Part shown: piece after piece, positions 5,633-24,991 of the stretch
How the letters are laid out: every line of letters starts with the position of its first letter
Position numbering within the stretch: position 1 is the stretch's first letter
Assembly: GCA_022710975.1 (NCBI GenBank)
Contig: JAKLGA010000020.1
Coordinates: 1 to 64,000, forward strand
Length of the DNA: 64,000 nt
From: Myxococcota bacterium
GTDB taxonomy: Bacteria > Myxococcota > B64-G9
Direction: 5' to 3'
Made by a program: the position numbers and the translations under genes
Notes under the pieces: model-generated
The model's input: only the letters and a program-made list of their open reading frames with translations
The model's database searches: none
Told to the model about the DNA's origin: nothing

Positions 5633-5637
5633 GGGAG

Positions 5638-6645: not shown

Positions 6646-6680
6646 GACCCATCCCCAATCTACGCTACGCTGGCATCGCA

Positions 6681-6691: not shown

Positions 6692-6737
6692 GCCCACTGA
6701 CTTGGGCTGGTGACCACGGCCATTTTCCCCCAACGTC

Positions 6738-7814: not shown

Positions 7815-7935
7815 TCACCCCTTACTGAGCCTCACCGCGTTCTCCACCAGCCGGAGCGCCTCCCCGATGTCGTCCTGCTCCACCTCTACGCAGGTGGCAC
7901 CCGCAGCCGGGTGCTCAGAGGGAACACCCTGGGCG
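7815..7935 (-). pseudogene. Out-of-frame coding-like tail (possible frameshift)
   Basis: Just past the stop of the next gene, another minus-strand frame reads ATCVEVEQDDIGEALRLVENAVRLSKG before a TGA at 7815-7817. The composition and amphipathic helix look like real protein, but the frame has no start. It may be the end of a decayed gene, or the 7915-8322 gene may have lost a base near 7930. No family can be named. Confidence 0.3.
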
Positions 7936-9420: not shown

Positions 9421-10260
9421 ATGCTCGCGCCCGTGTCCAAGGAAGATTTCGTGACCCTCGGTAAGCGGTACCGCAGCGAGGAGATCATCAATGCGCTCGA
9501 CCGCCTCCTCCCCCTCGCCACCGCCGACCTCGCGGCCCTGGAGCCGGCCGGGTACACCCCCGAGCTGCTCGCGGAGCTCACCGCCCTCCGGGACCAGATC
9601 CGCGACGGCTCCGCGACCTGCCGCCAGGTGCGCGGCTCCAAGAAGGGCGCCCGCGCCGGCGAGGCCGTCGTCCTCGAGGAGGGCAAGAACGTGCTCCGCC
9701 GCGGCGTGGCCCTGGCCACCGTGGCCGTGGCCCGCAGGGCCCCGAACCCGGAGGAGACCGCCCAGGAGACCCGCGAGAAGGCCGCCGAGCTGACCAGCCA
9801 GGTCAAGGCCCTGTCCGGCCGCCTCGGCAAGGACGCCGCCCTCCTCCGCACCCGCCTCATCACCCTGCGCGCCCTCCTCGTCAACCCGGAGCTCAACCCC
9901 TCGGAGAAGGCCCGGGCCGAGATCCAGAAGTTCCTGGAGCGGCTCGACAAGACCGTCGCCGGCATCACCGCGCAGGCGGAGAGCAAGAAGGCGCTCAGGG
10001 AGCAGTCCAAGGACCGGACGGTCCAGATGGACGAGCTGGATGGCCGGGCCTACGCCAACATGCGCCTGCTCGCCCAGGTCGGGCGCGCCGTCTTCAAGGA
10101 CGTGGGCGACCTCGAACACAGCAGGATGTACTCGCTCCGGGAGCTGAGCCGGAAGAAGTCGGCGCAGGTCGAGAAGCCCACGGCCGGGGTCCAGCCGACC
10201 CCAGCGCCGGTCCAGCCGCGTACGGTCGAGCCCCTGCCTGCTCCGGCTGTGAACGGGTGA
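9421..10260 (+). CDS. Hypothetical helical protein, 279 aa
   Basis: The start has an excellent ribosome site (AAGGAGG, 7 nt before ATG 9421). The protein is almost wholly alpha-helical and charged, with long Ala/Glu/Lys/Arg heptads (about 85-210) that look like a coiled-coil bundle. A Pro-rich disordered tail follows (TPAPVQPRTVEPLPAP). There is no signal peptide. Ser/Asp-led N-terminal helices precede a motif RSEEIINALDRLLP. The size and shape suggest a structural or cytosolic bundle protein, but I do not recognise a named family. It stands alone between a divergent spacer and the 21-bp repeat array. Confidence 0.6.
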   Translation: MLAPVSKEDFVTLGKRYRSEEIINALDRLLPLATADLAALEPAGYTPELLAELTALRDQIRDGSATCRQVRGSKKGARAGEAVVLEEGKNVLRRGVALATVAVARRAPNPEETAQETREKAAELTSQVKALSGRLGKDAALLRTRLITLRALLVNPELNPSEKARAEIQKFLERLDKTVAGITAQAESKKALREQSKDRTVQMDELDGRAYANMRLLAQVGRAVFKDVGDLEHSRMYSLRELSRKKSAQVEKPTAGVQPTPAPVQPRTVEPLPAPAVNG

Positions 10261-10377
10261 GCTGAAAGCGAGGAGCACATTCCTACGACCCGTGTCCCGT
10301 CGCGCCGAGAAGCGGACCACTCGCCTCCCTCGCCGGAGCAAACACAGCGCGCCTCCGGCGAGGGAAGCCCCCACCTC

Positions 10378-10530
10378 GGACCGAAAAGGAGACACCCTGG
10401 ACCAAAGACGTTGCACCGCGGACCAGACTCCTGGCACCGGGTTTCAAGAGGGTCGCGCCTGCGGACCAGAAACTTCCCACCGCGGACCAAACACAAGAAA
10501 CCAAAAACCGGTTTCCCATATCCGAGGACC
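10378..10530 (+). repeat. 21-bp periodic repeat array (GGACCAAA core)
   Basis: GGACC occurs at 10378, 10399, 10420, 10463, 10484 and 10526, that is at steps of 21, 21, 43, 21 and 42 bp. The two skipped registers (about 10441 and 10505) hold degenerate copies such as ACCGG. The core is GGACCA(A/G)A followed by a variable region and often CACCGCGGACC. All minus-strand frames stay open through it because 21 is a multiple of three. It is intergenic, between the helical protein gene and the activase gene. Confidence 0.7.
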
Positions 10531-10679
10531 AAAAAGGACGCGGAGTTTTCCACTTTCCTGCGGGAGAAAACCCCGGCCCTCGGCAGAGGGAACGTCGGCC
10601 CGATCCGCAAGCGGCAGACTTCGCGGTGCCGGACGCATGGGTCCGCCCTTGCGTGACCCCAGGAGCCCCCCCATCCCAT

Positions 10680-10719
10680 CCTTCCCCCACCGCGCTGCGC
10701 GCGTGGGGGAAGGGGTCAC
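10680..10719 (-). terminator. Large palindromic hairpin downstream of the activase gene
   Basis: CCTTCCCCCAC (10680-10690) pairs perfectly with GTGGGGGAAGG (10703-10713) around a 12-nt loop. GTGACCCC at 10653 and GGGGTCAC at 10712 form a competing outer pair. It lies about 115 bp beyond the stop of the minus-strand activase gene, so it can serve as its terminator, although no T-run follows. The sequence belongs to a repeat family with an inverted copy at 15111-15150. Confidence 0.5.
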
Positions 10720-10827
10720 GGCCAGCCGCGGCTGGAACGCCCTCCTGCCCTTCACCCTCCTGGAAAGGCCCGGAGAGAGCCAGACACGCGGGATCGGCCA
10801 ACGCCCCGGGCCGATTCGTCGCAGGGG

Positions 10828-13800
10828 CTAATTCCTCTCCGCCAGATCCAGGTACGGATAGATCACGTTGTTCTTCTGGGCCGCGGTGCCGTCGTAGGTC
10901 ACCGTGACCACGGGCACCCCGGTCACCCGCTCGATGTCCGCCGCCATGGCCTCGGTCACCAGGGAGGGGCAGCAGAAGGCCGGGTTGGTCTGCACGAACA
11001 GCGCGAGGTCCGGGTGGCGCGCGAGCAGGTGGAAGATCTTCAGGAGATTGTCGAAGCTCTCGCCGGTGTGCTGCATGCGCACCCCGAAGCGGGCCACGAT
11101 CTGCTCGGCCGTGCCGAAGCGCCGGGTCACGCGGGGCTTGCCGATCACCTTCTGGAACTCGCGCTGGAAGCGGCGCTCGAGCACCTCCACCGCCCCGAGC
11201 AGCGGGGCGGTCAGCAGGAAGTCCTTGTAGTTCCGCTCGCGCAGCCACTTGCGCATGTAGGGCAGCGCGATGATGCGGCTGTACTCGGAGTAGGGCGTGG
11301 TCAGGGCCTCCCCCCCGTGGCGCTCGATGGCCCGCACCAGATCCTGGTTCAGCACGTCGTTGTCGCGGGCGTACAGATCGCCGAACAGCGCCACCTTGGG
11401 GCGCGGCTCGCCCCGCACCGGGATGGCCAGGAGGCGCGCCACCATCTCGCGGGCCGTCTCCAGCTTGCCGCGCTGGTCGAGCACCGCCAGGCGCGCCAGC
11501 TCGAGCAGCTCGGCCACGACGCGGTCGGTCTCGCCCGGATTCCGCTCGTAGGGCCGCACGTGGCAGGACATGCGCCGGAGCATGCCGCCGAACAGGTAGC
11601 CGTAGTAGGCGTCCAGCGCCGTGCCGAGCGACACCTCGTGGGCGGTGGTCTCGCCGTTGTAGAGCTGGGTGGCCTCGAAGCCGCCGCCCACGGTCTCCAG
11701 CAGCGCCTTGGCGTACTGGGGGAAGAAGCCGATGTTGCAGCCGATGGAGGACTGCGGCATCCACAGGGCGCAGTCGGCCGGATCGAGGCCCTGCGCGCGC
11801 ACCGCGGCCATGAACTGGTGCACGATGATGTTCAGCGGGATGCACTGGCCCGTGTTGTGCCCCAGGCTGGCCGCGATGCTGGCGGCGTCCTCGGGGATGA
11901 GGCGGGCGTCGATGCCGTTGTGCTGGAACGCCGCGGCGAACAGCGGCGAGGCCAGCGTGTCCCAGGCCGGCAAGAACAGCGGCCGGCCGGGCGGGAGCTG
12001 CTTCGAGATGGCCGGCACCAGCGGGAGCTTGGCCTGCCCGGCGATCGGCTGGGCCCCGGCGTGGTGGTTGCGGAAGGCGCGCACGGCCGCCTCGACGCGG
12101 GTCTCGTAGCCCACCTGGGAGTCGTGCTCGTCGAGCTGCAGGATCAGGTAGGGCTTGTCGTGGTGGTGCATGATGCGCCGGAAGTACTCGATGGCGCAGG
12201 CGTCCGGGCCGCACTTGAAGGAGGTCACCAGCACCGGGTACAGGCCCGGGGTGCGCGCGGCCCGCTCGGCCGCGGCCAGCACGCGCTTGGCCTGGCGCCA
12301 GTGCACCTTGCGGATCAGCCCGGCCACCTCCCCCAGGTCCGCGGGCGGCAGCATGTCCTGCTCCAGGGCCGGCACGCCCTGGGCGGCGAACAGCTCGGGG
12401 ATGCCCTTGTTCATCTCCGGGACGAACAGGGTGTAGGGCCGGCCGAGCAGCACCACGGCCACGTCCTGGCGGCCCTCCAGGACGCGGGCCATCACCCCGC
12501 GCCAGCTCGCGCGCTTCTCCTGGACGCGCTCCTCGGCCTGCCACCAGGCCCGCTCCACCTCGCCCCGGCCGAGGTCCTTGCCGAGCGCCGGCCGGAGCGC
12601 GGCGGTCAGCCGCCCCAGCCCGCCGAAGCGCCGCTCGCCGGCGTGCACCAGCGGCCGCAGGCAGCGCTCCAGCAGGCCGGGGGTGCGCAGCGTGTTCACC
12701 AGGGCCGGGGCGTACTGGGTGTAGTAGCAGAACTGGTGGCGCCGGCCGTCGTGGCGCTCCCCCTCCAGGTAGAAGGGGGCGAACACCCAGTCGGCCTTGT
12801 CGGCCAGCGAGCTCACGTGGGCGTGCCAGGCCGAGATGGGCGAGCAGAACTCCGCCCCGGCCAGGCGCTTGCCCTGGGTGACGGCCTCGGCCAGCCCCTC
12901 GCTGGTCACCGTGCGCACCCCCAGGCGGGCGAAGAAGTCCTGCCAGAAGGGCAGGTCCTCGACCAGGTGCAGGGCCGCCGGCAGGCCGATGGTGACCGCC
13001 CGGGCGCGGGGCGGCTCGGCCAGCGGCTCGGGCCGGAAGTGCGCCCGGCGGGCCTTGAGGAGGTCGAAGCCCGCGCGGTTCGAGGACACGAAGCGCTCCG
13101 TGTCCGCGTCGCGGCCGCACAGGAAGCCGTAGGTCACCCGCTCGCCGCCCACCTCGGCCACCCGCAGCTTGCAGTGGTTGCGGCACAGCTCGCACACCTC
13201 GCCGCGCACCGGGATGCGCTCGGCGTGGAGCCCGAGGCCGCGGAAGCGGGTCTCGAAGCCCGGGGCGCGGGCCAGCGCGCGGAGCTCGAGCGCCACCCCC
13301 AGGGCGCCGGTCAGGTGGCAGTAGCGCGAGACGCGGATGGGCCGCTGCAGGCGGGCCTCGAAGGCCGCCACCAGGGAGCGGTTCTTGGCCGTGGCCCCCT
13401 GGAAGCAGACCCGCTCGCCGATCTGGCCCTCGCGCGCCACCTTGAGCAGGTAGTTCTCGCGCACCGCGTGCAGCACGGCGCACAGCGCCTCGTCCACCGC
13501 GCAGCCCTCGGCCAGGAACACGTTGATGTCGCGCTCCATGAAGACCGTGCAGCGATCGCTCGCCAGCGGGGCGCGCCGCCCCTCGGTGCGCGCGGCCAGG
13601 TCCTCCAGGCGGCAGCCGAGCCTCCGGGCCTGCTCCTCGATGAACGAGCCCGTGCCCGCGGCGCACACCTGGTTCATGAACGACTGGGTGACCGTGCCGG
13701 CGTTCAGCGTGGTGAACTTGGCGTCCTGCCCGCCGATCTCGATGATGGTGTCCACCCGCGGGTCGAGCGCCACGGCCGCCCCGGCGTGGGCGGTGATCTC

Positions 13801-15048
13801 GTCCAGCACCCGGTCCGCGCCCAGCAGCGCGCCGATGTACTTCCGCCCCGAGCCCGTGGTGCCCGCGGCGCGCACCTCGAGCTCGAAGCCGCCCGCTCGC
13901 GCCCAGTCGACGGCCGCCTCCAGCAGGGCCTGGGCCGCCACCAGCGGCTGCCCGGCCGTGCGGGTGTAGAACCCGGCCAGCACCGGCAGCCCCTCGTCGC
14001 CTGGACCGGCCGGGCCCGCGGGGTCGAGCAGCACGGCCTTGGTCGAGGTGGAGCCGACGTCGATGCCTAGAAGTACAGGTACGCGCGCGCCGCGGGTCGG
14101 GGCCTGGTACTCGTCCACCTCGACCGGGCCGGGCGCGGGCACCACCCGCGGGCTGAAGGCGTACGAGCGCTCGGACCAGCGCGTGGGGTACTCGCTGCGC
14201 ACGAGCGCCAGCGGGGCGTAGAAGCCCTTCACCCCGGCTGGCCCCGGCGCGGCCGGGGGGGGCAGCTCGGCCGGCTCGCCCCGGCGCACCCGCCCGAGCT
14301 CGAGCGCGGCCCCCAGCGCTCCGTACAGCGAGCAGTGCTCGTCCACCACGAGCGGGCAGCCGAGCAGCGCCTGCAGGTGCCGGGTCACCGCCTGGTTGCG
14401 CGCCACCCCGCCGGCGAACACGACCGGCTCGGGCGGGGGCTGGCCGGAGAACAGCGCGTCGTGCACGTTGGCCGCCAGGCCCTGGCACAGCCCGTCGCAG
14501 ATGGCCGGGAGGTCGTAGCCCTCCTGCTGGGCGTGGATGAGATCGGTCTTGGCGAACACGGCGCAGCGGGTGGCGATGCGCGGGCGCGCGCCCTCGGCCC
14601 GGCGCGCCAGCCCGGCCAGCTCGGAGCTGTCGGCCAGGCCCAGGCGCTGGGCCTGCTGGTCGAGGAAGGAGCCGGTGCCGGCGGCGCACAGGCTGTTGAA
14701 GCGGCTGCCCTTGTAGCGCCCGCCGGGCTCGAACACGCTCAGCGAGAACTTCTCCCCGCCGACCAGCAGCAGCGCGCCCAGCCCCGGGTGCAGCACCCGG
14801 GCCGCGCGGATGGTGGCCACCAGGTTGTCGGCGCGGTGGGCGGCCGGGAGCGCCGCCGGGGTGGACTCGGTGGCGGCCACCGCCTCCGGCCCCGGCCCGC
14901 CCAGGCGCGCGAGCAGCTGCCGGGCCACGCCCACGGGATCGCCGCGGTGGCGCACGGTCGCGCCGCGCAGCAGCACCCCGTCGGGGCCGACCTCGGCCAC
15001 CGACACGGACACCGAGCCCACGTCCAGCCCGACCAGGATGTCGCCCAT
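10828..15048 (-). CDS. Double acyl-CoA dehydratase activase (BcrA/BadF/HgdC type) with DUF2229, 1406 aa
   Basis: Two ASKHA ATPase modules of the BcrA/BadF/HgdC family are fused. The first starts at LDVGSVSVS (about residue 8), the second at IDVGSTSTKAVLLD (about 328). Each carries CAAGTGSF (about 120 and 463), and the second has EIGGQDAKF; in HgdC such Cys bind an intersubunit [4Fe-4S] cluster. A CELCRNHC motif (about 618) opens the DUF2229 part (FCSPISAWHAH, FAPFYLEGERHDGRR), followed by a long C-terminal domain with FKCGPDACAIEYF and YNGETTAHEVSLG. Family members use ATP to inject a low-potential electron into 2-hydroxyacyl-CoA dehydratases or benzoyl-CoA reductases. No dehydratase gene is nearby, so the partner is unknown. 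The length is typical of the large fused form. Confidence 0.85.
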   Translation of the reverse strand: MGDILVGLDVGSVSVSVAEVGPDGVLLRGATVRHRGDPVGVARQLLARLGGPGPEAVAATESTPAALPAAHRADNLVATIRAARVLHPGLGALLLVGGEKFSLSVFEPGGRYKGSRFNSLCAAGTGSFLDQQAQRLGLADSSELAGLARRAEGARPRIATRCAVFAKTDLIHAQQEGYDLPAICDGLCQGLAANVHDALFSGQPPPEPVVFAGGVARNQAVTRHLQALLGCPLVVDEHCSLYGALGAALELGRVRRGEPAELPPPAAPGPAGVKGFYAPLALVRSEYPTRWSERSYAFSPRVVPAPGPVEVDEYQAPTRGARVPVLLGIDVGSTSTKAVLLDPAGPAGPGDEGLPVLAGFYTRTAGQPLVAAQALLEAAVDWARAGGFELEVRAAGTTGSGRKYIGALLGADRVLDEITAHAGAAVALDPRVDTIIEIGGQDAKFTTLNAGTVTQSFMNQVCAAGTGSFIEEQARRLGCRLEDLAARTEGRRAPLASDRCTVFMERDINVFLAEGCAVDEALCAVLHAVRENYLLKVAREGQIGERVCFQGATAKNRSLVAAFEARLQRPIRVSRYCHLTGALGVALELRALARAPGFETRFRGLGLHAERIPVRGEVCELCRNHCKLRVAEVGGERVTYGFLCGRDADTERFVSSNRAGFDLLKARRAHFRPEPLAEPPRARAVTIGLPAALHLVEDLPFWQDFFARLGVRTVTSEGLAEAVTQGKRLAGAEFCSPISAWHAHVSSLADKADWVFAPFYLEGERHDGRRHQFCYYTQYAPALVNTLRTPGLLERCLRPLVHAGERRFGGLGRLTAALRPALGKDLGRGEVERAWWQAEERVQEKRASWRGVMARVLEGRQDVAVVLLGRPYTLFVPEMNKGIPELFAAQGVPALEQDMLPPADLGEVAGLIRKVHWRQAKRVLAAAERAARTPGLYPVLVTSFKCGPDACAIEYFRRIMHHHDKPYLILQLDEHDSQVGYETRVEAAVRAFRNHHAGAQPIAGQAKLPLVPAISKQLPPGRPLFLPAWDTLASPLFAAAFQHNGIDARLIPEDAASIAASLGHNTGQCIPLNIIVHQFMAAVRAQGLDPADCALWMPQSSIGCNIGFFPQYAKALLETVGGGFEATQLYNGETTAHEVSLGTALDAYYGYLFGGMLRRMSCHVRPYERNPGETDRVVAELLELARLAVLDQRGKLETAREMVARLLAIPVRGEPRPKVALFGDLYARDNDVLNQDLVRAIERHGGEALTTPYSEYSRIIALPYMRKWLRERNYKDFLLTAPLLGAVEVLERRFQREFQKVIGKPRVTRRFGTAEQIVARFGVRMQHTGESFDNLLKIFHLLARHPDLALFVQTNPAFCCPSLVTEAMAADIERVTGVPVVTVTYDGTAAQKNNVIYPYLDLAERN

Positions 15049-15110
15049 GCTGCGCCTCCGGCGGCGGATTCTGGCCCAGGCCCGCCGGGGATCTCAAGAC
15101 ATTCCTCTGG

Positions 15111-15150
15111 CCAACCCCTCCCCCCCGCGCGAAGCGCGGTGGGGGCCCTC
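15111..15150 (-). repeat. Palindromic repeat, inverted relative to the copy at 10680
   Basis: The minus strand reads CCCCCACCGCGCTTCGCGCG followed by GGGGGGAGGGG. The plus strand at 10684-10716 reads CCCCCACCGCGCTGCGCGCG and then TGGGGGAAGGGG. The two copies lie just outside the two ends of the activase gene in opposite orientation. A GC-rich tail with GGGAGGGGGGGCCAGG completes a larger imperfect palindrome up to about 15200. Confidence 0.5.
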
Positions 15151-15242
15151 GAGAGGCGTGAGGACGGCTTCGCCGAGGCAGGGAGGGGGGGCCAGGGGTG
15201 GGGGGCTTGACAGGTCCGGCCCGGCATGGGAAGCCCGGAGCC

Positions 15243-16772
15243 ATGCGCCCGCTCGCCTTCAAGCGCTACGGTCAGGGCCCCTGGAAGCGGGTGCTGCTCG
15301 TGGCCCCGAAGCACCCGGACAACTTCTGGTGCCTGGAGGGCATGGTCGAGCTGATGGGCGCCCGGGCCCTGGTGCCCAACCCCGCCCTGCCCACCCTGAT
15401 GGCGCTCACCCCGCCCGGGCTGGGGGTGGAGTACCGCCTGCAGGACGAGAACGTGGGCCCGCTCGCCCTGGACACCCCCTGCGACCTGGTGGCGGTGACC
15501 GGCAACACCCTGCACGCCGCCCGGGTGATCGAGCTGTGCCGGGCCTTCCGGGCCCGGGGGGTGCCTGTCGCGCTGGGCGGCACCTGGGCCAGCGTGCACG
15601 CCGAGCGCGGCCGGGAGCTCGCCGACCACCTGTTCCTGGGCGAGGCCGAGCTCACCTGGCCGCGCTTCCTCCAGGACTGGGCCGCCGGGCGCGCCCAGGC
15701 GGTCTACGCCCAGGAGGGGCCCGTCGATCTGGCGCTGAGCCCGGCGCCCGACTTCAGCCTGCAGGATCCGCGCCACTACGTCAGCATGAGCGTGCAGGCC
15801 AGCCGGGGCTGCAACCACCGCTGCGACTTCTGCGACGTGGTGACGCTGTTCGGCCGCCACCGGGTGAAGCCCGTCGAGCAGGTGCTGCGCGAGGTGCAGG
15901 CCGTGCACGCGCTCGGCGCCCGCTCGGTGTTCATCACCGACGACAACTTCATCGGGCACAAGGAGCACGCCCGGGCGCTGCTCGAGGCGATCATCGCCTG
16001 GAACACGCGCCAGACCCGGCCGCTCAGCTTCAGCACCCAGCTCGCCCTCGAGGTGGCCGACGACGAGGATCTCCTGCAGAAGCTGGCCGACGCGCGCTTC
16101 TCGGTGCTGTTCATGGGGCTGGAGTCGGTGCGGGCCGAGAGCCTGGACGAGGTGCAGAAGGGCCACAACCTCAGGCGCGATCCGCGCGAGCGCCTGCGGC
16201 GGCTCAACCGCCACGGGCTGGTGCCCTTCCTGGGGCTGATCGTGGGCTTCGACCACGACGACGCCACGGTGTTCGACGAGATCTTCGCCTTCATGCAGAC
16301 CGCCGCGGCCCCGGCCGCCGGGGTGAGCCTGCTGGCCGCCCCGCGCGGCACCCCGCTGCACGCGCGCCTGCAGGCCGAGGGGCGCCTGCTGGCGGACGAG
16401 TTCGCCGGCGAGTGGCACCACGGCACCAACGTCCTGCCCAAGCAGATGAGCCCGGCCGAGCTGGCGGCCGGCCACCGGGACCTCCTGCGCCGGCTGTACG
16501 CCCCGGAGGCCTTCGAGGCCCGCTTCGCCGCCTGGCTGGGGCAGATCGAGGAGCTGACCGACCGCTACCCGCGCAAGAAGACCGACTGGCCCATGCTGCT
16601 GCGCTCGGGCCGCCTGTTCCGCTACTTCCTCACCCGGGCCCCGGCCGACGAGCGGGGGCTCTTCCTGCGCTGCCTGAGGCTGGCCTGGCGGAAGGACAAG
16701 CGGCTCGTCAAGCGCGCGGTGACCCTGCTGGCCCAGTACCACCACTTCCACGCCTTCGCCCGCCGGGGCTGA
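15243..16772 (+). CDS. B12-binding-domain radical SAM protein, 509 aa
   Basis: Residues about 15-150 form a cobalamin-binding Rossmann-type domain (VLLVAPKHPDNFW, GVPVALGGTWASVH), although the DxHxxG motif is not evident. The radical SAM site is SRGC190-NHR-C194-DF-C197, followed by FITDDNFIGHK and LFMGLES. The C-terminal half matches the DUF4070 region seen in HpnJ-like and related methylases or oxidoreductases (GLIVGFDHDD, GTPLHARL). It probably acts on a lipid or small-molecule substrate in the cytosol; the reaction is unknown. TTGACA at 15207-15212 may be a -35 element, but no matching -10 was found. It is convergent with a two-gene cluster. Confidence 0.85.
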   Translation: MRPLAFKRYGQGPWKRVLLVAPKHPDNFWCLEGMVELMGARALVPNPALPTLMALTPPGLGVEYRLQDENVGPLALDTPCDLVAVTGNTLHAARVIELCRAFRARGVPVALGGTWASVHAERGRELADHLFLGEAELTWPRFLQDWAAGRAQAVYAQEGPVDLALSPAPDFSLQDPRHYVSMSVQASRGCNHRCDFCDVVTLFGRHRVKPVEQVLREVQAVHALGARSVFITDDNFIGHKEHARALLEAIIAWNTRQTRPLSFSTQLALEVADDEDLLQKLADARFSVLFMGLESVRAESLDEVQKGHNLRRDPRERLRRLNRHGLVPFLGLIVGFDHDDATVFDEIFAFMQTAAAPAAGVSLLAAPRGTPLHARLQAEGRLLADEFAGEWHHGTNVLPKQMSPAELAAGHRDLLRRLYAPEAFEARFAAWLGQIEELTDRYPRKKTDWPMLLRSGRLFRYFLTRAPADERGLFLRCLRLAWRKDKRLVKRAVTLLAQYHHFHAFARRG

Positions 16773-16774
16773 GC

Positions 16775-16795
16775 GCCCGGGAGGCGCCCCCGGGC
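16775..16795. terminator. Bidirectional terminator hairpin
   Basis: GCCCGGG (16775-16781) pairs with CCCGGGC (16789-16795) around a 7-nt loop. It sits exactly between the converging stops at 16772 and 16796, so it can serve both genes. There is no T-tract. Confidence 0.6.
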
Positions 16796-17095
16796 TCAAC
16801 CCTCCGGGATGCCGAGCTGGGCGAGTTTCCTGGCCAGGCCCTCGGGGGAGTTCAGCGTGTGCAGGTGGGTGCCGTCCGGGTGGCGGTAGGTGATGAGCCC
16901 GCCGCCGCCGGGGAGGGGGAGGACGAGCACGGCGTCGCGCGCGGCCGGGACGTGGTGCTCCTGGGCGGGCGCGTCGCTCCCGGCCAGCGCCTCCGGGGTG
17001 AGCCCGGGCTCCGGCGCGGCCAGCACGTACCGCCCCGGGCAGCCCCGGAGCTCCCGCCAGGCCCGCCCGGTGAACAGCTCGTGGAAGGTCCTCAT
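16796..17095 (-). CDS. Hypothetical protein, 99 aa
   Basis: The ATG at 17095 overlaps the stop of the upstream VanZ-like gene (ATGA type), which signals translational coupling. The protein begins MRTFHELFTGRAWREL. It has a CPGRYVLAAPEPGLT segment, a beta-rich stretch AVLVLPLPGGGGLITYRHPDGT and a leucine-rich C-terminal helix (GLARKLAQLGI). There is no signal or membrane segment. It may be a small globular cytosolic protein; the family is not recognised. Its stop is shared with a hairpin terminator. Confidence 0.6.
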   Translation of the reverse strand: MRTFHELFTGRAWRELRGCPGRYVLAAPEPGLTPEALAGSDAPAQEHHVPAARDAVLVLPLPGGGGLITYRHPDGTHLHTLNSPEGLARKLAQLGIPEG

Positions 17096-17463
17096 GCTCG
17101 CCTCGCCGGGCGCGGGCCGGCGCCGCCGCCCCGGCGGACCAGGGCGTCGAGCCCGAGCGCCAGGCCCACCCCGGCCGCGTTGGCGACGAAGTCGAGCGGG
17201 TCGTAGGTGTTCGCCATGACGCCGAAGCCGTCCGTGGCCTCGAACAGCTCCACGGCCGCGAGCGCGAGCCCCGCGGAGAGGAGCCTGCCGAAGCGGCCTG
17301 GCCAGGGCAGGAAGGTGGCCACGAAGTAGAGGGCGAAGGAGACGCACAGGTTGCCGGCGTGGCACCGCACCAGCTCCTGCCCGGGCCCCGCGTACTGGTC
17401 GCGCAGCAGGAGCCCGGCCACGCCGGCGAGCACGAGCGCCACCCTGAGGACCCGGTCCTTCAC
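17092..17463 (-). CDS. VanZ-like small membrane protein, 123 aa
   Basis: I chose a GTG at 17463 (VKDRVLRVALVLAG) with a GGAAGG-type ribosome site. Three or four membrane helices are visible: about 5-22 (VALVLAGVAGLLL), 38-58 (NLCVSFALYFVATFLP), 66-80 and 95-115. The motif YDPLDFVANAAGVGLALGLD near the C-terminus resembles the 'D..AN..G...G' signature of VanZ-like proteins, which are inner-membrane proteins of unclear biochemical role. The first Cys pair (CHAGNLC) is unusual. It is coupled to the downstream 99-residue protein by a 4-bp overlap. Confidence 0.6.
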   Translation of the reverse strand: MKDRVLRVALVLAGVAGLLLRDQYAGPGQELVRCHAGNLCVSFALYFVATFLPWPGRFGRLLSAGLALAAVELFEATDGFGVMANTYDPLDFVANAAGVGLALGLDALVRRGGGAGPRPARRA

Positions 17464-17710
17464 GCCTTCCCCTTCCCGCGCCAGCACGGCAGCGCCCACC
17501 CACCTGATACAACGTGGTCCAGGCTGCCGAGTCAAACCCTGTGGCCGCCGAAAAGGGATTCTATGAGGGTGGAAGCACGCAAGAGAAATCGAGCAGGAGG
17601 GCCGGGAGGTATCGTCGCATTCATCCGCGCTGGCCGGGAGCGCTGACAGCGGGCTCGGGCAGGCCGCTGGAGCAGGCCAGGGCGGCCAGATCCGCGTCCA
17701 CCGGTTCGGC

Positions 17711-20700
17711 TCAGTGGCACTGCCAGAAGGCCGTGTCGGCGAACACGTACATCACCCCGCAGTCGCCCAGGTTCATGTCGACGAAGCTCTCGTCGAACTG
17801 CGCCAGGAACGCGCCGCCGTCCTCCTCGTCCTGCAGCCAGATGGGCTCGCCCAGCGCCCGCCCGCCGGCCCGGTAGATCTCCCCGCGCAGCTCCTTGTCG
17901 CTGCCCTTGCCCTGCCAGACGGAGGGCGACAGGTCGACGGCCACCGCCTGGTAGCGCCGCCGCTCCAGCGCGGGCGCGTCCTCGGGGGGCGGCTCGGCCG
18001 CCGCCAGCTCCTCCTCGCGGGTGCACACCACCGCGGTCTGGTCCGTGCCCGCCTCGTAGGCCTCGTTGTCGTCCGGGTTCAGGCAGAACACCGACACCGC
18101 CCGCACCCCCTCCCCCACCCGCGCGGCCAGCTCGGGCATGCTGCGCACATCCAGGGTGAACAGGTGGGTCATGGGCTCGTCCCCGCAGCGCGGCCAGCGC
18201 GAGGCGCCCACCCCCGGGGCGGGCCCGCCGATCAGGTTGAGGTCGTCCCCGGCCGGATCGCCCTCCAGCCGGCGCAGCAGGTAGATGCGCTCGCCCTGGC
18301 CGCCCGCCTTCTCCGCGCGCAGCCGCACCTTCTCCACGTGGTCGAGCTGGGCGGCCTGGGCCACCCCCGCCGCGCGCAGCTCAGCCTCCAGCTCCTCGAA
18401 GGCCTGGCGGCCGAGCGCGTCCCGGAGCGCGTCGCCCAGCCCCCCGCCCCCGCCCGACTGCAGGATCCACCTCACCCAGCCGCGCGCGCCGGGCAGCGCG
18501 GCGAGCCCGGCCCGCACGTCCCGCTGCTGCTCGGCCTTGAAGGTCGCCTCGCGGGCGACGAGCTCGCGGAAGGCCACCTCGAGCACGCGCCGGGTGGGGT
18601 GGCTGGCGAGCATGCGGAAGGCGCGCGAGAAGGCGTCCGAGGCGAGGCCGCGCAGCAGCACCTGCTCGGCCCGCGGGGTGGGCAGCCGGTGCACGATGCG
18701 CTGCAGGAACGGGAGGTAGAACTGGTGGTAGTAGTCGTCCTTGATGGCGTCGAAGCGCACGAAGCGGTCGTACTCCTCCGAGAAGTCGCCCTGCTCCTCG
18801 ATCGCCCGCGCCAGCGCGACCAGCATGGCCTTGCCCAGCCCCTCGCGCCAGTCCTTGCCCTTGGCGGCCTCCAGGGCCTCGGCCAGCAGCGGCAGCCCCT
18901 TCGCCCCGAGGTCGCCCAGGCCGTAGACGCACGGGTCGCGGTGGCCGTAGGTGTCCGCCAGGGCGAGCCCGAGGAAGCGCCGCCACAGCGCCGGGTCGTC
19001 CACCAGGTGGAGGTACTGGCCGGCCTCGGTCTGGCCGTAATGCGACTCCATCTGCCGCTCGAGCACCCCGCGCAACGCCTCGGCGGGCAGCCGGGCGAGC
19101 GCGCGGCGCAGGAGCGCCGTGCGGGGCACCGCGCAGCCCGGGCCGATCCCGACCCGGGCCGCGATGTGGTGCGGATCCTCGCGCAGCCCCTCGTCGAGCT
19201 CCCGCAGCGCGCCGTGGTACCACTCGCTGGAGCTGGTCGGCGACTCGGTGGCCAGCGCCAGGGCGGCCAGCAGCTCGGGGGGGATCTCCCGCCCCTCCTC
19301 GCTCAGCTTCAGGATGGCCACGCACACGCACGGCCACTTGCGCAGCCCCGTGTCCTTCACCTCCAGGGCGATCCGCGCCAGGGTGGCGCCGTCGTCGTGG
19401 CGCCACTCGGTCAGCGCCCGCTGGAGGTAGTCCTGGGTGAAGTTGTCGAGCGAGATGCCGGAGATCAGCACGGCGAGCTGCTCGGGCGTGGCCCGCTCCA
19501 CCAGCGGGCGGAAGGTGGCGAAGCTCACCCGCGCGCAGGACTCCTCGGCCTCGCGGAAGGCGTGCTTCTCCAGCTCGGCCACGAAGTCCTCGTACGGGCC
19601 GAAGAAGCCGAGCAGCCGGTCGAAGAGCTCGGTGCGGGTGCCCTGGTAGTCGAGGAAGAGCTTGCGCTGCTCGGGCAGGCCGCCCTCCCCGGGCCACCAG
19701 ATGTCCGGCCCGAGCCCCCGCTCCACGTGGGCCGCGGCCAGGGCGGGGAGCAGGCCCTTCAGGGTGTCGCCCGCGCTCTTGCCGAAACGCGCCTGCACCA
19801 GGGCGACGCCCGCCCTCATCGGCCCCGGCAGCGAGTCCCGGGCCGCGTCGATCGGCCCGGGCTCGCGCGCGTACACCTCCATGACCAGGCGGTCGAGGCT
19901 GTCCGGCCAGCCCGGCAGCACGGTCGCGTAGGCGTCCTTGGTCTGCGCCGCCCTCAGGAAGGCGACCACCTCCTCGCCGCGCACCAGCTCGTCCACCTCG
20001 CACAGCAGCTCCCACAGGTCCGGATCGGCCGGGACGTCCAGGTGCCCGCCCCGCCACAGGTGCAGCAGGAAGGCCGCGCGCTGGCCGTACTCCACGCGCT
20101 CCCCCAGGGCGTCGGCCTTGGCGTAGTGATCCTTGGCCTTCTTGAGCTTCTTGAGCACCTTCTCGCGCCCCTTGGCGTCGGCTCGGACCTCCTCGGGCAG
20201 GCCGTCGACGTACAGGCCGCGGACCTCCTGGCCCGCCTCGTCCAGGTGGAGGTGCTCGCCGACCGCCTGGCCGTGCAGCCACTCGCCCCGGTAGGTCAGC
20301 TTGCCGGTGGGGTCGAAGACCTCCTCCAGGCCGTGCTTCTCGCCCCGGCAGAAGCCGCGCCGCAGGGCGAGCTGCCCGCCGGGGAACCAGGCCGCCTCGG
20401 GGCCGTGCTGCGCGCCCCGGTCGAAGGCGCGCTCGAGCTTCTCCCAGGCCCCCTCCCGCCACCAGGTCCAGGCGCCGTGGTACTTGTCGTCCAGGTAGGC
20501 CCCCCGGGCGCGCGGCGAGCCGTCCTCCAGGTCCCAGCGGTACTCCCCCTGGCGCAGGCCCCGCCCGTCGTAGGTGCAGGCCTGGTTGAAACGCCCGTCC
20601 GGGTACCACCAGGTCCAGGTGCCGATCCGCTTGCCGCGCTCGTTCCGCCCGTCGCAGATCTTGGTGCCGTCCGCGGTCCAGTCGAGCTCCGGCCCGTGCT

Positions 20701-21190
20701 TCAGACCCGCCTCCCAGGTGTAGTCCTCGCGGAGCTGGCCGCTCTCGAAGTACACCTTCCAGGAGCCGTGCCGGAGCCCGGCCCGGTAGCTGCCCGACAC
20801 CCGCACCCGGTCCGAGCCGGGGAAGCGCTCCAGGTACTCGCCATCGCGCGGCGGCGGCTCGACGAAGGGCATGGGCAGCGCGGGCTTCGGAGGCTCGGCG
20901 GCGGCGGCAGGCGCGGCGGCGCCCGCGAGCAGCTCGTCGAGGGCCTGGCCCTGGATGAGCGCGACCAGCTCGGCCTCGCCCAGCACGGGCAGGCCGCGCT
21001 TCTTGGCCTGGCCGAGCTTGGTGGCCCCGGGGTTCTTGCCGGCGAACACGACCTGGGTCTTGCCGCTGACCGAGCCGGTCACGTCGGCCCCCAACCCCTC
21101 CAGGACGCGCGTGGCCTCGTCGCGCTCGTAGGCGCCGAAGTCCCCGGTCAGCACGATCTTGAGGCCCGCCAGGCGGCTGGACTCGCTCAT
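17711..21190 (-). CDS. BRCT / YwqK-repeat / helical-repeat / DUF1963 giant protein, 1159 aa
   Basis: AAGGAG precedes the ATG at 21190. Residues about 5-80 are a BRCT domain (GLKIVLTGDFGAYERDEATRVLEGLGADVTG, FAGKNPGATKLGQAKKRGLPVL), as in NAD-dependent ligases and Rfc1. After an Ala-rich linker, about 115-300 contain MORN/YwqK-type repeats (GSYRAGLRHGSWKVYFESGQL, KHGPELDWTADGTKI). A long helical region (about 340-960) looks like HEAT-type repeats. The last 180 residues match DUF1963/YwqG (IGGPAPGVGASRWPRCG, QDEEDGGAFLAQFDES, GVMYVFADTAFWQCH). No enzymatic motif is seen; it may be a scaffold or sensor. The HEAT protein gene lies 71 bp upstream on the same strand. Confidence 0.75.
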   Translation of the reverse strand: MSESSRLAGLKIVLTGDFGAYERDEATRVLEGLGADVTGSVSGKTQVVFAGKNPGATKLGQAKKRGLPVLGEAELVALIQGQALDELLAGAAAPAAAAEPPKPALPMPFVEPPPRDGEYLERFPGSDRVRVSGSYRAGLRHGSWKVYFESGQLREDYTWEAGLKHGPELDWTADGTKICDGRNERGKRIGTWTWWYPDGRFNQACTYDGRGLRQGEYRWDLEDGSPRARGAYLDDKYHGAWTWWREGAWEKLERAFDRGAQHGPEAAWFPGGQLALRRGFCRGEKHGLEEVFDPTGKLTYRGEWLHGQAVGEHLHLDEAGQEVRGLYVDGLPEEVRADAKGREKVLKKLKKAKDHYAKADALGERVEYGQRAAFLLHLWRGGHLDVPADPDLWELLCEVDELVRGEEVVAFLRAAQTKDAYATVLPGWPDSLDRLVMEVYAREPGPIDAARDSLPGPMRAGVALVQARFGKSAGDTLKGLLPALAAAHVERGLGPDIWWPGEGGLPEQRKLFLDYQGTRTELFDRLLGFFGPYEDFVAELEKHAFREAEESCARVSFATFRPLVERATPEQLAVLISGISLDNFTQDYLQRALTEWRHDDGATLARIALEVKDTGLRKWPCVCVAILKLSEEGREIPPELLAALALATESPTSSSEWYHGALRELDEGLREDPHHIAARVGIGPGCAVPRTALLRRALARLPAEALRGVLERQMESHYGQTEAGQYLHLVDDPALWRRFLGLALADTYGHRDPCVYGLGDLGAKGLPLLAEALEAAKGKDWREGLGKAMLVALARAIEEQGDFSEEYDRFVRFDAIKDDYYHQFYLPFLQRIVHRLPTPRAEQVLLRGLASDAFSRAFRMLASHPTRRVLEVAFRELVAREATFKAEQQRDVRAGLAALPGARGWVRWILQSGGGGGLGDALRDALGRQAFEELEAELRAAGVAQAAQLDHVEKVRLRAEKAGGQGERIYLLRRLEGDPAGDDLNLIGGPAPGVGASRWPRCGDEPMTHLFTLDVRSMPELAARVGEGVRAVSVFCLNPDDNEAYEAGTDQTAVVCTREEELAAAEPPPEDAPALERRRYQAVAVDLSPSVWQGKGSDKELRGEIYRAGGRALGEPIWLQDEEDGGAFLAQFDESFVDMNLGDCGVMYVFADTAFWQCH

Positions 21191-21261
21191 GTCGTCTCCT
21201 TTCGAGAGCTCTTTCAGGTCCTGAGCAGACGGAGGTCGCTGGGGATTTCCAGGCCTGCGCC

Positions 21262-22080
21262 TCAGCCCGGCGGGGCCAGCCGCCGCAGGGTCAGCCGGAC
21301 CGGGACCGGGCCGCCCTCGCGCTCCAGGCCGACCACCACGCCCGCGCAGGGGGCCCGCAGCGGACCGCCCGGCCCCTCCGCGAGCGGCTCCCCGGCCGCC
21401 ACCTGGCTGCCCTCGATCACCAGGAGCTTCTGCGCCCCGGGCAGCGGGACCTCGAGCAGCCGGCGCGGCCGGCCGCCGGGCGGGGGGCGGCCCAGCCGGG
21501 CGCAGATCGCCTCCAGGGCGTCGAGGGCCCCCTCGCGCGTGCCGATCGGGGTGCGCTTCCCCGCGAGCACCCGCTCGAGCGGCGCCAGGAGCTCCTCGCC
21601 CCCCCAGCGCCTGGCCGCGCCCACGGCCGCGAACACCACCAGCCCGTCGCGGTCCCGGAGCAGCCCGGCCAGCCGGGGCACGAGGCGCGGATCGCTCCGC
21701 TCGACCAGCCGGGTGAGCGCCAGCCAGCGCATGGACCCGTCCCGGCTCGCGAGCGCCTGCTCGAGCAGCTCGGCCGCGGCCGGGCCAGGCACCTGGCCCG
21801 CGGCCGAGAGCACGGCGAAGGAGCCGACCAGCGCGGGCTCGCGCAGGACCTCCTCGACGAAGGTCGCGGTGAAGGCCACCGCCAGCCTGGAGAGCAGATC
21901 CTCCAGGTCCTCCATCACCGCCCGGCCGTTGGCCCCGGGCTCCCCGAGCGGGACCCTGGCCCGCAGCGCCGCGCACACCTCCCCCACCGCCCGCTCGCCC
22001 AGGGCCAGGACGGCCTCCCGGGCCCCGGCAGAGCCGGCCGAGCCGAGCGAGCGGAGCGCGCGCTGCACCACCTCGTCCAT
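21262..22080 (-). CDS. HEAT-repeat protein with C-terminal barrel-sandwich-like domain, 272 aa
   Basis: Residues about 1-190 are alpha-helical repeats of HEAT type (AREAVLALGERAVGEVCAAL, SMRWLALTRLVERSDPRLVPRLAGLLRDRDGLV). The last 70 residues are beta-rich and read LLVIEGSQVAAGEPLAEGP then LRAPCAGVVVGLE. This is the pattern of a biotinyl/lipoyl-type barrel-sandwich hybrid, but without the modified lysine motif (a Cys sits where MK would be). Such a pairing is uncommon. It is the first gene of a likely pair with the BRCT giant. The start is the ATG at 22080; no strong ribosome site was seen. Confidence 0.65.
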   Translation of the reverse strand: MDEVVQRALRSLGSAGSAGAREAVLALGERAVGEVCAALRARVPLGEPGANGRAVMEDLEDLLSRLAVAFTATFVEEVLREPALVGSFAVLSAAGQVPGPAAAELLEQALASRDGSMRWLALTRLVERSDPRLVPRLAGLLRDRDGLVVFAAVGAARRWGGEELLAPLERVLAGKRTPIGTREGALDALEAICARLGRPPPGGRPRRLLEVPLPGAQKLLVIEGSQVAAGEPLAEGPGGPLRAPCAGVVVGLEREGGPVPVRLTLRRLAPPG

Positions 22081-22140
22081 GGGCCGGCATGCTAGTCGAA
22101 CCGCGGGGGAAGTAAACAGCCCCCGTTGACGCGACGCGGC

Positions 22141-22169
22141 TTGTCAGGGACGCCGCCGCCGACTACCCT
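22141..22169 (+). promoter_or_regulatory. Sigma70-type promoter
   Basis: TTGTCA (22141-22146), 17 bp, TACCCT (22164-22169), placed 36 bp before the penicillin acylase start. The overlapping TTGACG at 22126 has no -10 at the right distance. Confidence 0.5.
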
Positions 22170-22204
22170 GCGCCCGGGCATACCGCCCTTCTGGGGGACC
22201 CGAG

Positions 22205-24991
22205 ATGAGCATCCGAGTGAACGTGGGTTGGCGCGGAGCGTACGGTCTGGTGGCGCTGCTCGCCCTCGGCGCGGGCTGCGACGAGGGCGGCGGCGGGCCG
22301 GCCACCCGCATCGAGGACCTGCCGATCCAGTCGGCCCCCCGGGTCGCGGGTCTGTCGGCCCCGGTGGACGTGGTCTACGACGATCGCGGCATCCCGCACA
22401 TCTACGCCGCGACCCTGGTCGACGCCTTCCGCGCCCAGGGCTACCTGATGGCCCGCGACCGCATGGGCCAGATGGAGTTCCTGCGCCGGGGGGTGACGGG
22501 CAGGCTGGCCGAGGTGGCCGGCAGCCTGGATCCGAGCCTGGTCCAGGGCGACGTGACCATGCGGGTGCTGGGCATCCCGCGCCAGGCCCGCGCCATCTGG
22601 GAGTCGCTGGCCGGCGACGAGGACATGCGCGAGGGGCTGCAGGCCTTCTCCGACGGGGTGACCGCCTACATCGACGAGCTGCGCGCGGGCACCTCCCGCC
22701 TGCCCGGCATCCTGCCCGAGCTCCTGCCGGCGGCCATGCTGACCGACTGGACGCCCGAGGACACCCTGGCGCTGGCCCGCTACCAGACCTACAACCTGAG
22801 CTTCACCGCCTGGGACGAGATCGATCGCAGCCTGGCCCAGCAGGCCGTGGCCGCGGCCTTCCCCGGCGACTCGCCCGATCCCCGGCTGGCCGCGCGGGCG
22901 GGCCTGTTCACCGACCTGTGGCCGCTGGCCCCGGCCGAGGTGGCGCTGACCCGGGCGGACTTCCTGGGCCCGCCGCCGCCGCGGCCCGCGCCGCTCCCCC
23001 CCGGCCTCCGGCCGTCCCTCCCCCAGCTCCAGGCCGCCCACCGCTTCGCAGCGGCGCTCCGGCGCTTCGACGCGCTCCAGTTCGGCCCGGAGCGCGGCTC
23101 GAACAACTGGGCCGTGGCCGGGGCCGGGATGGCCTCGGGCCTGGCCACGCTGGCCTCCAATCCGCACCTGGGCCTGAGCAGCCCGCCGGTCTTCTGGTTC
23201 GTGCACCTGAACACCGCGCGGGCCGGGGGAGACTGGGACACCCTCGGGCTGGCCTTCGCCGGCACCCCCGGGATCACCCTGGGCTTCAACCGCGACATCG
23301 CCTGGGGCGCCACGGTCTCCAACTTCGACGTGACCGACGTGTACCAGGAGGTGATCACCGCCGGCGCGGCCGGGGCGCCGGACACCGTCCTGTTCGACGG
23401 CGCGCAGGTGCCCCTCACCAGGCAGCACGAGGTGGTGCGGCTGAACGCGGGCGACCCGGTCGAGTTCGACGTCGAGTTCGTCCCCCACCACGGGCCGATC
23501 CTGCCCTCCACGCGCACGGCCGACTCGGCCCTCAGCGTCCGCTGGGTGGGCGAGCAGCCCTCCAACGAGATCGCCTGCTTCCTGGGGCTGGCCACCGCGC
23601 GCGGGGTGCAGGACATCCAGGCCGCGCTCGAGCACTTCGAGGTGGGCGGCCAGAACTTCATGTTCGCGACGAGCGCGGGCGACATCTACTGGTCCACCCA
23701 CGCCGAGGTGCCGGTGCGCGACGCGCGCGCGCTGGCCTGGACGCCGGGCCAGCCCGGGCTCCCGGCGCCCGACCGGGTGCTGCCCGGCACGGGCGAGTAC
23801 GAGTGGCAGGGCAGCCTGGACCACGCGCACATCCCGACCGCCGAGAACCCGGCCGACGGCTTCCTGGCCACCGCCAACCAGGATCAGGTGGGCACCAACA
23901 GCGACGGCAACCCCTTCAACGACCCGGTCTACCTGGGCTGGGGCTTCGATCTCGGCCACCGCATGGCGCGGATCAAGGGCCGGCTGGCGGAGCTCACCGC
24001 GCGCGGCGCGGTGACGACCGAGGAGCTCTCGGCGCTGCAGGGCGACCACCGCTCCCCGCTCGGCGCGGCGCTGGCCCCGGCCCTGGTCTCGGCCCTGGCC
24101 GCGCTCCTCGAGGAGCGGGACGCGCCGGGCAGCCACCCGGACCTGGCCGCGCTGGTGGCCGAGGCCGGCCCGGCCGGCCTGGGCGAGCTGCAGACCGCCC
24201 ACGACCGCCTGGCGGCCTGGTCGAGCTTCCTGGCGCCCTCGGGCCTGGAGCACGAGGCGAGCGCGGCGCAGGTGGCCGACAGCGTGGCCGCCAGCCTGTT
24301 CAACGCGAGCCTGGTGAAGCTCGCCCCGCTCGCGCTGGGCGACGAGCTGGCGCGCACGGGCCTGGAGGCCGGCCAGTGGCCGGACGGCCAGGCGGTGGCC
24401 CGCACCCTGGCCTGGGCGGTGAACGCGCCGGAGCGGCTGGCCAGCTACGACGCCGCCTCGGGCCAGAGCGTGCTGTGGGACGATCTGGACACCGAGCCCG
24501 AGGTGGAGACCCGGGACGAGCGCCTGGCCCGGGCGGTCTGGCTGGCCCTCCAGGAGCTCGAGTCCCGGCTGGGCGCCGATCCCGCGGCCTGGCAGTGGGG
24601 CCGGCTGCACACCCTGCGCCTGAAGACGCTCATCCCGGTGGATCGCTTCGGCGCGGACACGTTCTCCATCCCCCCGCCGGGCGATCCCGCCTACCCCGAC
24701 GGCTTCCCGCGCCACGGCGACAACTTCACCGTGGACCCGGCCAACTTCGGGCTGTGGGATCCGGACAGCTTCGGCTACTCCCACGGCCCCACCCAGCGGC
24801 TGGTGGCCGAGATGGGCCCGGACGGCCCGCGGGCCTGGAACGCGCTGCCGGGCGGCCAGCAGCACGACCCCGCCGGCCTGCACCACGCCGACGAGATGGA
24901 GCGTTGGCGCCGCAACGAGGCCCCGCCGCTGGCCTACGAGGAGCTCGACGTGGTCACCCACGCCGAGCGCCGCATCCAGCTCGTGCCCTAG
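22205..24991 (+). CDS. Penicillin acylase family lipoprotein, 928 aa
   Basis: The N-terminus VALLALGAGC25 is a lipoprotein signal. The A-chain motif VVYDDRGIPHIYA and QGYLMARDRMGQMEF are followed by the linker, then GS299-NNWAV, where the Ser is the N-terminal nucleophile exposed by autocleavage in Ntn-hydrolases of this family. Downstream NPHLGL, SNFDVTDVY and NPFNDPVYLGWGFD also fit. Family members hydrolyse amide bonds of penicillins, acyl-homoserine lactones or aculeacin. Here the lipid anchor implies an outer-membrane or periplasmic enzyme, and the substrate cannot be told. The length exceeds typical members (about 800) because of an insertion near residues 250-290. Confidence 0.88.
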   Translation: MSIRVNVGWRGAYGLVALLALGAGCDEGGGGPATRIEDLPIQSAPRVAGLSAPVDVVYDDRGIPHIYAATLVDAFRAQGYLMARDRMGQMEFLRRGVTGRLAEVAGSLDPSLVQGDVTMRVLGIPRQARAIWESLAGDEDMREGLQAFSDGVTAYIDELRAGTSRLPGILPELLPAAMLTDWTPEDTLALARYQTYNLSFTAWDEIDRSLAQQAVAAAFPGDSPDPRLAARAGLFTDLWPLAPAEVALTRADFLGPPPPRPAPLPPGLRPSLPQLQAAHRFAAALRRFDALQFGPERGSNNWAVAGAGMASGLATLASNPHLGLSSPPVFWFVHLNTARAGGDWDTLGLAFAGTPGITLGFNRDIAWGATVSNFDVTDVYQEVITAGAAGAPDTVLFDGAQVPLTRQHEVVRLNAGDPVEFDVEFVPHHGPILPSTRTADSALSVRWVGEQPSNEIACFLGLATARGVQDIQAALEHFEVGGQNFMFATSAGDIYWSTHAEVPVRDARALAWTPGQPGLPAPDRVLPGTGEYEWQGSLDHAHIPTAENPADGFLATANQDQVGTNSDGNPFNDPVYLGWGFDLGHRMARIKGRLAELTARGAVTTEELSALQGDHRSPLGAALAPALVSALAALLEERDAPGSHPDLAALVAEAGPAGLGELQTAHDRLAAWSSFLAPSGLEHEASAAQVADSVAASLFNASLVKLAPLALGDELARTGLEAGQWPDGQAVARTLAWAVNAPERLASYDAASGQSVLWDDLDTEPEVETRDERLARAVWLALQELESRLGADPAAWQWGRLHTLRLKTLIPVDRFGADTFSIPPPGDPAYPDGFPRHGDNFTVDPANFGLWDPDSFGYSHGPTQRLVAEMGPDGPRAWNALPGGQQHDPAGLHHADEMERWRRNEAPPLAYEELDVVTHAERRIQLVP

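What the first reader, a model, noticed from the sequence alone, without database searches (positions are those of the whole stretch)
17711..22080. BRCT-YwqK-helical-DUF1963 giant next to a HEAT/barrel-sandwich protein
BRCT domains occur chiefly in DNA ligases and replication or repair factors. Here one is joined to YwqK/MORN repeats, a 600-residue helical region and DUF1963, and the upstream gene encodes HEAT repeats with a biotinyl-like domain lacking its lysine. The pair looks like an undescribed two-component scaffold or polymorphic-effector/immunity-like system; YwqK and YwqG (DUF1963) are neighbours of a toxin gene in Bacillus, which hints at a conflict role.
Basis: partly seen in the sequence, partly recalled or inferred. 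Interest (0 to 1): 0.58.

Follow-up and report, generated by a model that had tools for sequence, protein, structure and literature searches.

The report
BRCT-tethered YwqG-like scaffold protein, myxobacterial
A rare, very large bacterial protein joins a DNA-end-binding type of domain to a long helical arm and a peptide-binding YwqG-like end, so it probably holds other proteins at DNA or another phosphate-marked site; the gene beside it is not a conserved partner.

Summary
The large gene is real. It is 1159 aa (17711-21190, minus strand), not 1459, and homologues of 47-52% identity exist. The BRCT and YwqK (MORN_2) assignments pass Pfam. The "helical region" is a HEAT/ARM-like solenoid. The C-terminus matches DUF1963/YwqG (TYPP) by profile-profile comparison (96%, both repeats), although Pfam misses it. 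The BRCT domain keeps all four residues that bind a DNA 5'-phosphate in Rfc1 (T15, G16, R23, K58), so the BRCT is of the ligase/RFC1 type.

The HEAT gene has no homologue beyond a weak HEAT match in 146 related genomes and is absent beside the relatives of the large gene. Its "barrel-sandwich" end is only a sub-threshold hit. No toxin, immunity or conflict gene was recognised in the flanking genes scanned.

The family is rare: 6 of 195 genomes of the phylum, one of them only a fragment. It is built on a solenoid-TYPP core with changing N-termini. BRCT and WGR fusions to YwqG were already in print in 2014.

Best reading: a cytoplasmic scaffold or client-binding protein, perhaps tethered to 5'-phosphorylated DNA. 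Client and phenotype are unknown.

The parts
17711..21190 (-). Large gene, 1159 aa (P0001): BRCT - YwqK/MORN_2 repeats - HEAT/ARM-like solenoid - DUF1963/YwqG-like (TYPP) domain; stop codon included
   Evidence: ORF and start; homologues in other genomes
20954..21178 (-). BRCT domain, residues 5-79, LigA/RFC1 type, with the four 5'-phosphate-pocket residues T15, G16, R23, K58
   Evidence: Pfam E 3.3e-12; PDB hits to LigA and RFC1; residues checked against those named in PMC9359705
20186..20848 (-). YwqK / MORN_2 repeat region, about residues 115-335
   Evidence: MORN_2 34.1 bits; repeat spacing seen; boundaries by eye
18311..20173 (-). All-helical solenoid, about residues 340-960, HEAT/ARM-like
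   Evidence: AlphaFold2 model of residues 330-1159 (mean pLDDT 64); VIA-align best Z 7.7 to the PP2A A subunit over model residues 232-601
17714..18286 (-). C-terminal DUF1963/YwqG-like (TYPP) domain, residues 969-1159, with the conserved Q of the second repeat
   Evidence: hhalign 96.0%, E 4.2e-9 against six DUF1963 proteins; 100 shuffled controls at most 0.31%; Q invariant in 6 of 6 rows
21262..22080 (-). Upstream HEAT-repeat gene, 272 aa (P0002), 71 bp before the large gene; a neighbour, not a shown partner
   Evidence: HEAT_2 31.0 bits; no co-occurrence
21265..21468 (-). C-terminal part of P0002, possible RpoC-hybrid/barrel-sandwich-like stretch, unproven
   Evidence: RPOC_hybrid E 0.072, below cut-off; unresolved in the model

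Best explanation
The large gene encodes a stand-alone, cytoplasmic multidomain scaffold. Its core is a HEAT-like solenoid ending in a YwqG/TYPP domain, which would grip an extended stretch of a client protein in the pocket around the conserved glutamine. The N-terminal modules decide where it docks: here a BRCT domain of the DNA-ligase/RFC1 type, which would hold a 5'-phosphorylated DNA end or nick (or a phosphorylated partner in the same pocket), plus YwqK repeats as a further binding surface. Shown here: the domain make-up, the intact phosphate pocket in sequence, the swapping of N-terminal modules on a constant core, and the absence of a fixed partner gene. Inferred: DNA-5'-phosphate binding, client binding, and the link between them.
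For: BRCT matches LigA (best 3.4e-11) and RFC1 (4.6e-9) in the PDB. Rfc1 Thr166, Gly167, Arg174 and Lys209 form the 5'-phosphate site (PMC9359705 passages); the equal-length match 6-82 to 157-233 places them at T15, G16, R23 and K58, all present. TYPP assignment 96% with shuffled controls near zero; Q invariant in 6 of 6 rows. TYPP proposed as chaperone-like/protein-binding (PMC4275035 section 9); mutations of TYPP residues abolish PDCD2-uS5 binding (PMC10216425 passage). Solenoid similar to PP2A-A scaffolds, importins and condensin subunits. Module swapping: KOW-like+BRCT+YwqK in G004, YwqK without BRCT in G028, KOW-like only in the own-genome paralogue, neither BRCT nor YwqK in G119. In G191 the solenoid and the TYPP part are separate ORFs. 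No strongly hydrophobic 19-residue stretch (maximum KD 1.25).
Against: No client, phenotype or biochemical test. The GGxP hallmark is altered (GGPAP/GGLAP in three rows, absent in three others). BRCT is missing in G028, G119 and the own paralogue, so DNA docking cannot be the core function. The model is only moderately confident (pLDDT 64, pTM 0.46) and its TYPP part is not matched to 1PV5 in the rows shown by fold search. VIA Z values under 13 for repeat proteins may mean only a common arrangement.
Confidence: 0.4

Rival explanations
1. A conflict or defence protein: the N-terminal modules sense foreign or damaged nucleic acid and the TYPP-solenoid recruits an effector, or the YwqK part acts as an immunity protein.
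For: YwqK is the partner of the LXG toxin YwqJ in Bacillus (PMC8321402 passages). BRCT also gives a PADLOC candidate hit, PDC-S48 (E 8.7e-7, BRCT part only). The distribution is patchy. In G119 the homologue lies about 1.3 kb from ParA-like and AAA_16 NTPase genes.
Against: No toxin, nuclease or NTPase gene found beside the window copy among the neighbours scanned or seen in my reading of the surroundings of the own paralogue. No solenoid-TYPP match among the phage, plasmid or viral-contig hits seen. The PADLOC hit covers only the common BRCT domain. The conflict-type WGR-MoxR-DUF5682-VWA locus of this genome lies on another contig.
Confidence: 0.2
2. A phosphoprotein-binding scaffold: the BRCT pocket reads a Ser/Thr-phosphorylated partner rather than DNA.
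For: The same kind of pocket binds phosphopeptides in other BRCT domains (PMC9359705 and PMC10386641 passages). Myxobacteria have many Ser/Thr kinases (recalled).
Against: Phosphopeptide binding is typical of tandem BRCTs; the single BRCT of Rfc1, grouped with those of prokaryotic ligases and PARP1, binds DNA (PMC9359705). Only one BRCT is present.
Confidence: 0.2
3. A ribosome-assembly or translation chaperone, a bacterial counterpart of PDCD2/Tsr4, the dedicated chaperone of uS5.
For: TYPP domain shared with PDCD2/Tsr4 (PMC4275035; PMC6648895 and PMC13127195 seen as abstract openings). Two homologues carry a KOW-like domain whose profile also finds L24-like ORFs.
Against: Present in only 6 of 195 genomes of the phylum, far too rare for a core ribosome factor. 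BRCT and YwqK have no known link to ribosomes (recalled).
Confidence: 0.1

Closest known systems
YwqG / DUF1963 / TYPP domain proteins (Burroughs & Aravind 2014, PMC4275035)
   Same: C-terminal domain by profile-profile comparison, conserved Q of the second repeat; BRCT and WGR fusions to YwqG-family domains already reported there (passages and section 9 read)
   Different: Below Pfam's threshold, GGxP altered; a 600-residue solenoid and YwqK repeats lie between BRCT and TYPP; that paper's main text does not mention MORN, HEAT or KOW (0 occurrences; its supplement and figure were not read)
LigA / RFC1 single BRCT domain
   Same: Sequence class and all four 5'-phosphate-pocket residues
   Different: Not attached to a ligase or clamp loader; no catalytic domain recognised
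YwqK of the Bacillus ywqH-L LXG toxin locus
   Same: YwqK-type repeats (that YwqK is a MORN_2 protein is recalled)
   Different: No LXG or deaminase toxin neighbour; the repeats are one part of a large fusion
XRCC1 / PARP1-type BRCT scaffolds
   Same: BRCT used to bring a scaffold to nicked DNA (works-like comparison; PMC6334254 passages and abstract opening)
   Different: No sequence relation outside BRCT; function here is inferred

Membership tests
TYPP / YwqG (DUF1963) | Homology over both repeats of the domain | tested here: met
   hhalign 96.0%, E 4.2e-9, 157 columns; 100 shuffled controls at most 0.31%; WGR control 0.07%
TYPP / YwqG (DUF1963) | Conserved glutamine of the second repeat | tested here: met
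   Q163 of A5 invariant in 6 of 6 rows
TYPP / YwqG (DUF1963) | GGxP motif of the first repeat | tested here: inconclusive
   GG kept but P one residue later in 3 of 6 rows (GGPAP, GGPAP, GGLAP); no such motif in G119, G191 and the paralogue. The source says 'typically' GGxP
TYPP / YwqG (DUF1963) | Pfam DUF1963 gathering score | tested here: not met
   No DUF1963 hit at E<1 for P0001 nor at E<0.1 for P0003-P0006 and the G191 ORF; filed as a divergent YwqG-like domain, not a Pfam member
BRCT, LigA/RFC1 class | Pfam BRCT above cut-off | tested here: met
   46.9 bits against 21.3
BRCT, LigA/RFC1 class | Rfc1 5'-phosphate residues Thr166, Gly167, Arg174, Lys209 | tested here: met
   T15, G16, R23, K58; the non-universal Lys208 is T57. 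The yeast alignment itself was not printed: position by equal-length range; the printed human RFC1 alignment agrees
BRCT, LigA/RFC1 class | Binding to 5'-phosphorylated dsDNA | not testable with these tools
   Needs purified protein
YwqK / MORN_2 repeat protein | MORN_2 above cut-off | tested here: met
   34.1 bits against 29.6; also P0003 and P0004
Polymorphic toxin-immunity system (ywqJ-ywqK like) | Adjacent toxin gene | tested here: not met
   None among the neighbours scanned: six flanking genes, plus P0002
Two-component system with the HEAT gene | Co-conservation of the two genes | tested here: not met
   P0002: 2 of 146 genomes match, the own one and a HEAT-only match in G008, which is not a carrier of the large gene; nothing of note beside homologues

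The most novel reading that the evidence does not exclude
A bacterial DNA-break scaffold of a new architecture: an N-terminal single BRCT (with KOW-like and YwqK modules in some members) docks on 5'-phosphorylated nicks or ends, and a solenoid with a TYPP tip holds and folds client proteins there. It would be a prokaryotic functional analogue of XRCC1-type scaffolds, and would give a role to a bacterial TYPP domain.
Probability: 0.15. Interest if true: 0.6.

Novelty: new variant of a known kind. Interest (0 to 1): 0.33.

Why it matters
I found no tested function for the bacterial YwqG/TYPP domain in the passages read, while its eukaryotic relatives PDCD2 and Tsr4 are dedicated chaperones of uS5. 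A protein that ties a TYPP domain to a BRCT with an intact 5'-phosphate pocket gives a concrete, testable handle: what does the BRCT hold, and what client does the TYPP tip hold at the same time? The swapping of BRCT, KOW-like and YwqK modules on one core shows which part is the constant function.

Tried and rejected
Two-gene system: rejected on co-occurrence.
Toxin/immunity: no partner gene found.
Mobile or phage origin: no viral-contig relatives (101 pattern matches, none confirmed). Phage records (12 matched) and plasmid records (15 matched), none with 80% of the query covered; the 8 listed of each match only the BRCT or the YwqK region.
WGR domain in the G191 solenoid ORF: looks WGR-like by eye, but Pfam finds nothing at E<0.1 and hhalign gives only 17%; left open. 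The WGR profile used there held rows read on the wrong strand (see below), so this test is weak.
Fold search: no PDB or viral match at E<=0.001.
Profile search of the C-terminal domain against PDB sequences: one chance-level hit, E 0.47.
A Fisher test of KOW-like module against solenoid-TYPP family is circular, since the module sits inside family members in two genomes, and is not used.
P0002 paralogues: none in the own genome at E<=1e-5.
Rfc1 residues in print: the primary human RFC1 paper is not held, so yeast residues from PMC9359705 are used.

Full report
What is there. The upstream gene, 22080 to 21262, ends 71 bp before it. No promoter- or terminator-like site was found in 17400-22400, so co-transcription is possible but not shown. 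Homologues of 47-52% identity over the YwqK-solenoid-TYPP part exist in two other genomes, so the large gene is under selection as a protein.

Domains. Pfam gives BRCT (residues 5-79) and MORN_2 above cut-off, and nothing else below E 0.2. PDB sequence hits are LigA and RFC1 BRCT domains. PMC9359705 (passages) names Thr166, Gly167, Arg174 and Lys209 of yeast Rfc1 as the universally conserved 5'-phosphate site; the stretch 6-82 of the protein matches Rfc1 157-233 at equal length, which puts these at T15, G16, R23 and K58, all present. The same letters can be read in the BRCT of G004 and of a second BRCT protein in G028. AlphaFold2 on residues 330-1159 with three rows gives helices to about residue 960, then strands (mean pLDDT 64). 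VIA-align's best rows are PP2A A subunits (Z 7.7, rmsd 6.1, 307 aligned), which for repeats may mean only a common arrangement.

Pfam does not see it. A profile of six family members against six DUF1963 proteins of related genomes gives 96.0%, E 4.2e-9, 157 columns over both repeats; 100 column-shuffled versions reach at most 0.31%, and a WGR profile 0.07%. The conserved glutamine is invariant in 6 of 6 rows. The GGxP motif is altered or missing. I therefore call it a divergent YwqG/TYPP-like domain.

Family and module swapping. With a solenoid-TYPP profile, 6 of 195 genomes of the phylum match; with the TYPP part alone, 6 of 193. One of the six (G006) is only a 34-column fragment. The single-protein search matched 111 of 146 genomes, but among the listed rows nearly all are BRCT (many in ligase-length frames) or YwqK; only G000, G004, G028 and G119 give long matches there. 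In genome contigs 19 loci encode a relative, but only two, the G004 and G028 contigs (same lengths as JALVPF010000055.1, named Myxococcales, and JAUIJE010000002.1), cover the query; the other 17 match the YwqK part. N-termini differ: KOW-like+BRCT+YwqK in G004, YwqK without BRCT in G028, neither in G119, KOW-like in the own-genome paralogue at G000:C3. In G191 a solenoid ORF and a TYPP ORF lie on different contigs. The KOW-like module scores below Pfam's KOW cut-off (E 0.0078), but its profile finds L24-like ORFs in related genomes (L24 by my reading). It occurs in 4 of 193 genomes, and in G028 it sits behind the BRCT of a separate 624-aa protein.

The neighbour. The HEAT gene passes Pfam for HEAT_2; the hybrid-like tail does not. 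In 146 genomes only the own one and a HEAT-only match in G008 are found; beside the homologues tblastn gives nothing below E 0.5 (L037-L041, L061, L062). The pair is an accident of this genome as far as the data go. P0002 was folded from a single sequence, with pLDDT 52.

Function. PMC4275035 (passages of section 8, all of section 9) names the TYPP superfamily, reports BRCT and WGR fusions to its YwqG family, and proposes a chaperone-like or peptide-binding role. PMC10216425 (passages) says that changes of conserved TYPP residues abolish PDCD2-uS5 binding. PMC10504179 (abstract) reports that removing the BRCT of a bacterial LigA lowers its affinity for dsDNA. Together with the phosphate pocket of the BRCT this suggests a scaffold that holds a client at a phosphate-marked site, most likely DNA. 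That step is inference. The BRCT is absent from three of the other four single-chain family members, so docking on DNA is an added feature, while solenoid-TYPP is the constant function.

Conflict role. None of the neighbours scanned supports it. The genome does hold a WGR-DUF4132 / MoxR-AAA / DUF5682-VWA locus, on another contig. PADLOC's hit is the BRCT alone.

Literature. No held paper contains both YwqK and DUF1963. With BRCT, YwqG, WGR and Myxococc, three of four terms occur only in PMC4275035. I found no description of this five-part architecture in these searches, which cover only the held open-licence library.

Noticed in passing
window 1-8000: GC falls to 0.48-0.59 against about 0.74 elsewhere; ORFs there include an OLD-like TOPRIM protein and an HSDR_N-type protein, suggesting an inserted defence or mobile island.
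   Followed up: partly
L109 (G000:C1) 9788-19808: Run of genes WGR-DUF4132, a large protein without a Pfam hit in its first 888 aa, MoxR-type AAA ATPase, and DUF5682 with VWA_CoxE: looks like a known MoxR-VWA type NTP-dependent conflict locus (recalled class).
   Followed up: partly
L108 8494-10368 minus (G028:C11): 624-aa protein with C-terminal BRCT followed by the same KOW-like module; its N-terminal part looks ankyrin-like by eye only.
   Followed up: partly
L039 8581-9357 and L038 2-3205 (G004): Homologue of the large gene cut by contig ends; its N-terminus adds a KOW-like domain before the BRCT.
   Followed up: yes
L040 3324-6145 (G119): ParA-like KGGVGR-type NTPase and an AAA_16 protein in tandem about 1.3 kb from the solenoid-TYPP gene; similar repeated sequence flanks them (minus ORFs at 1246-2622 and 6874-7170 share their start).
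   Followed up: no
L113 1159-1662 (G166:C98): 167-aa ORF with a helical-looking N-terminus and the KOW-like module at its end, behind a 311-aa ORF.
   Followed up: no
L042 9814-9972 minus (G028:C18): 52-residue remnant of the TYPP second repeat just downstream of an RNase HI-like gene (by my reading), probably a decayed copy.
   Followed up: no
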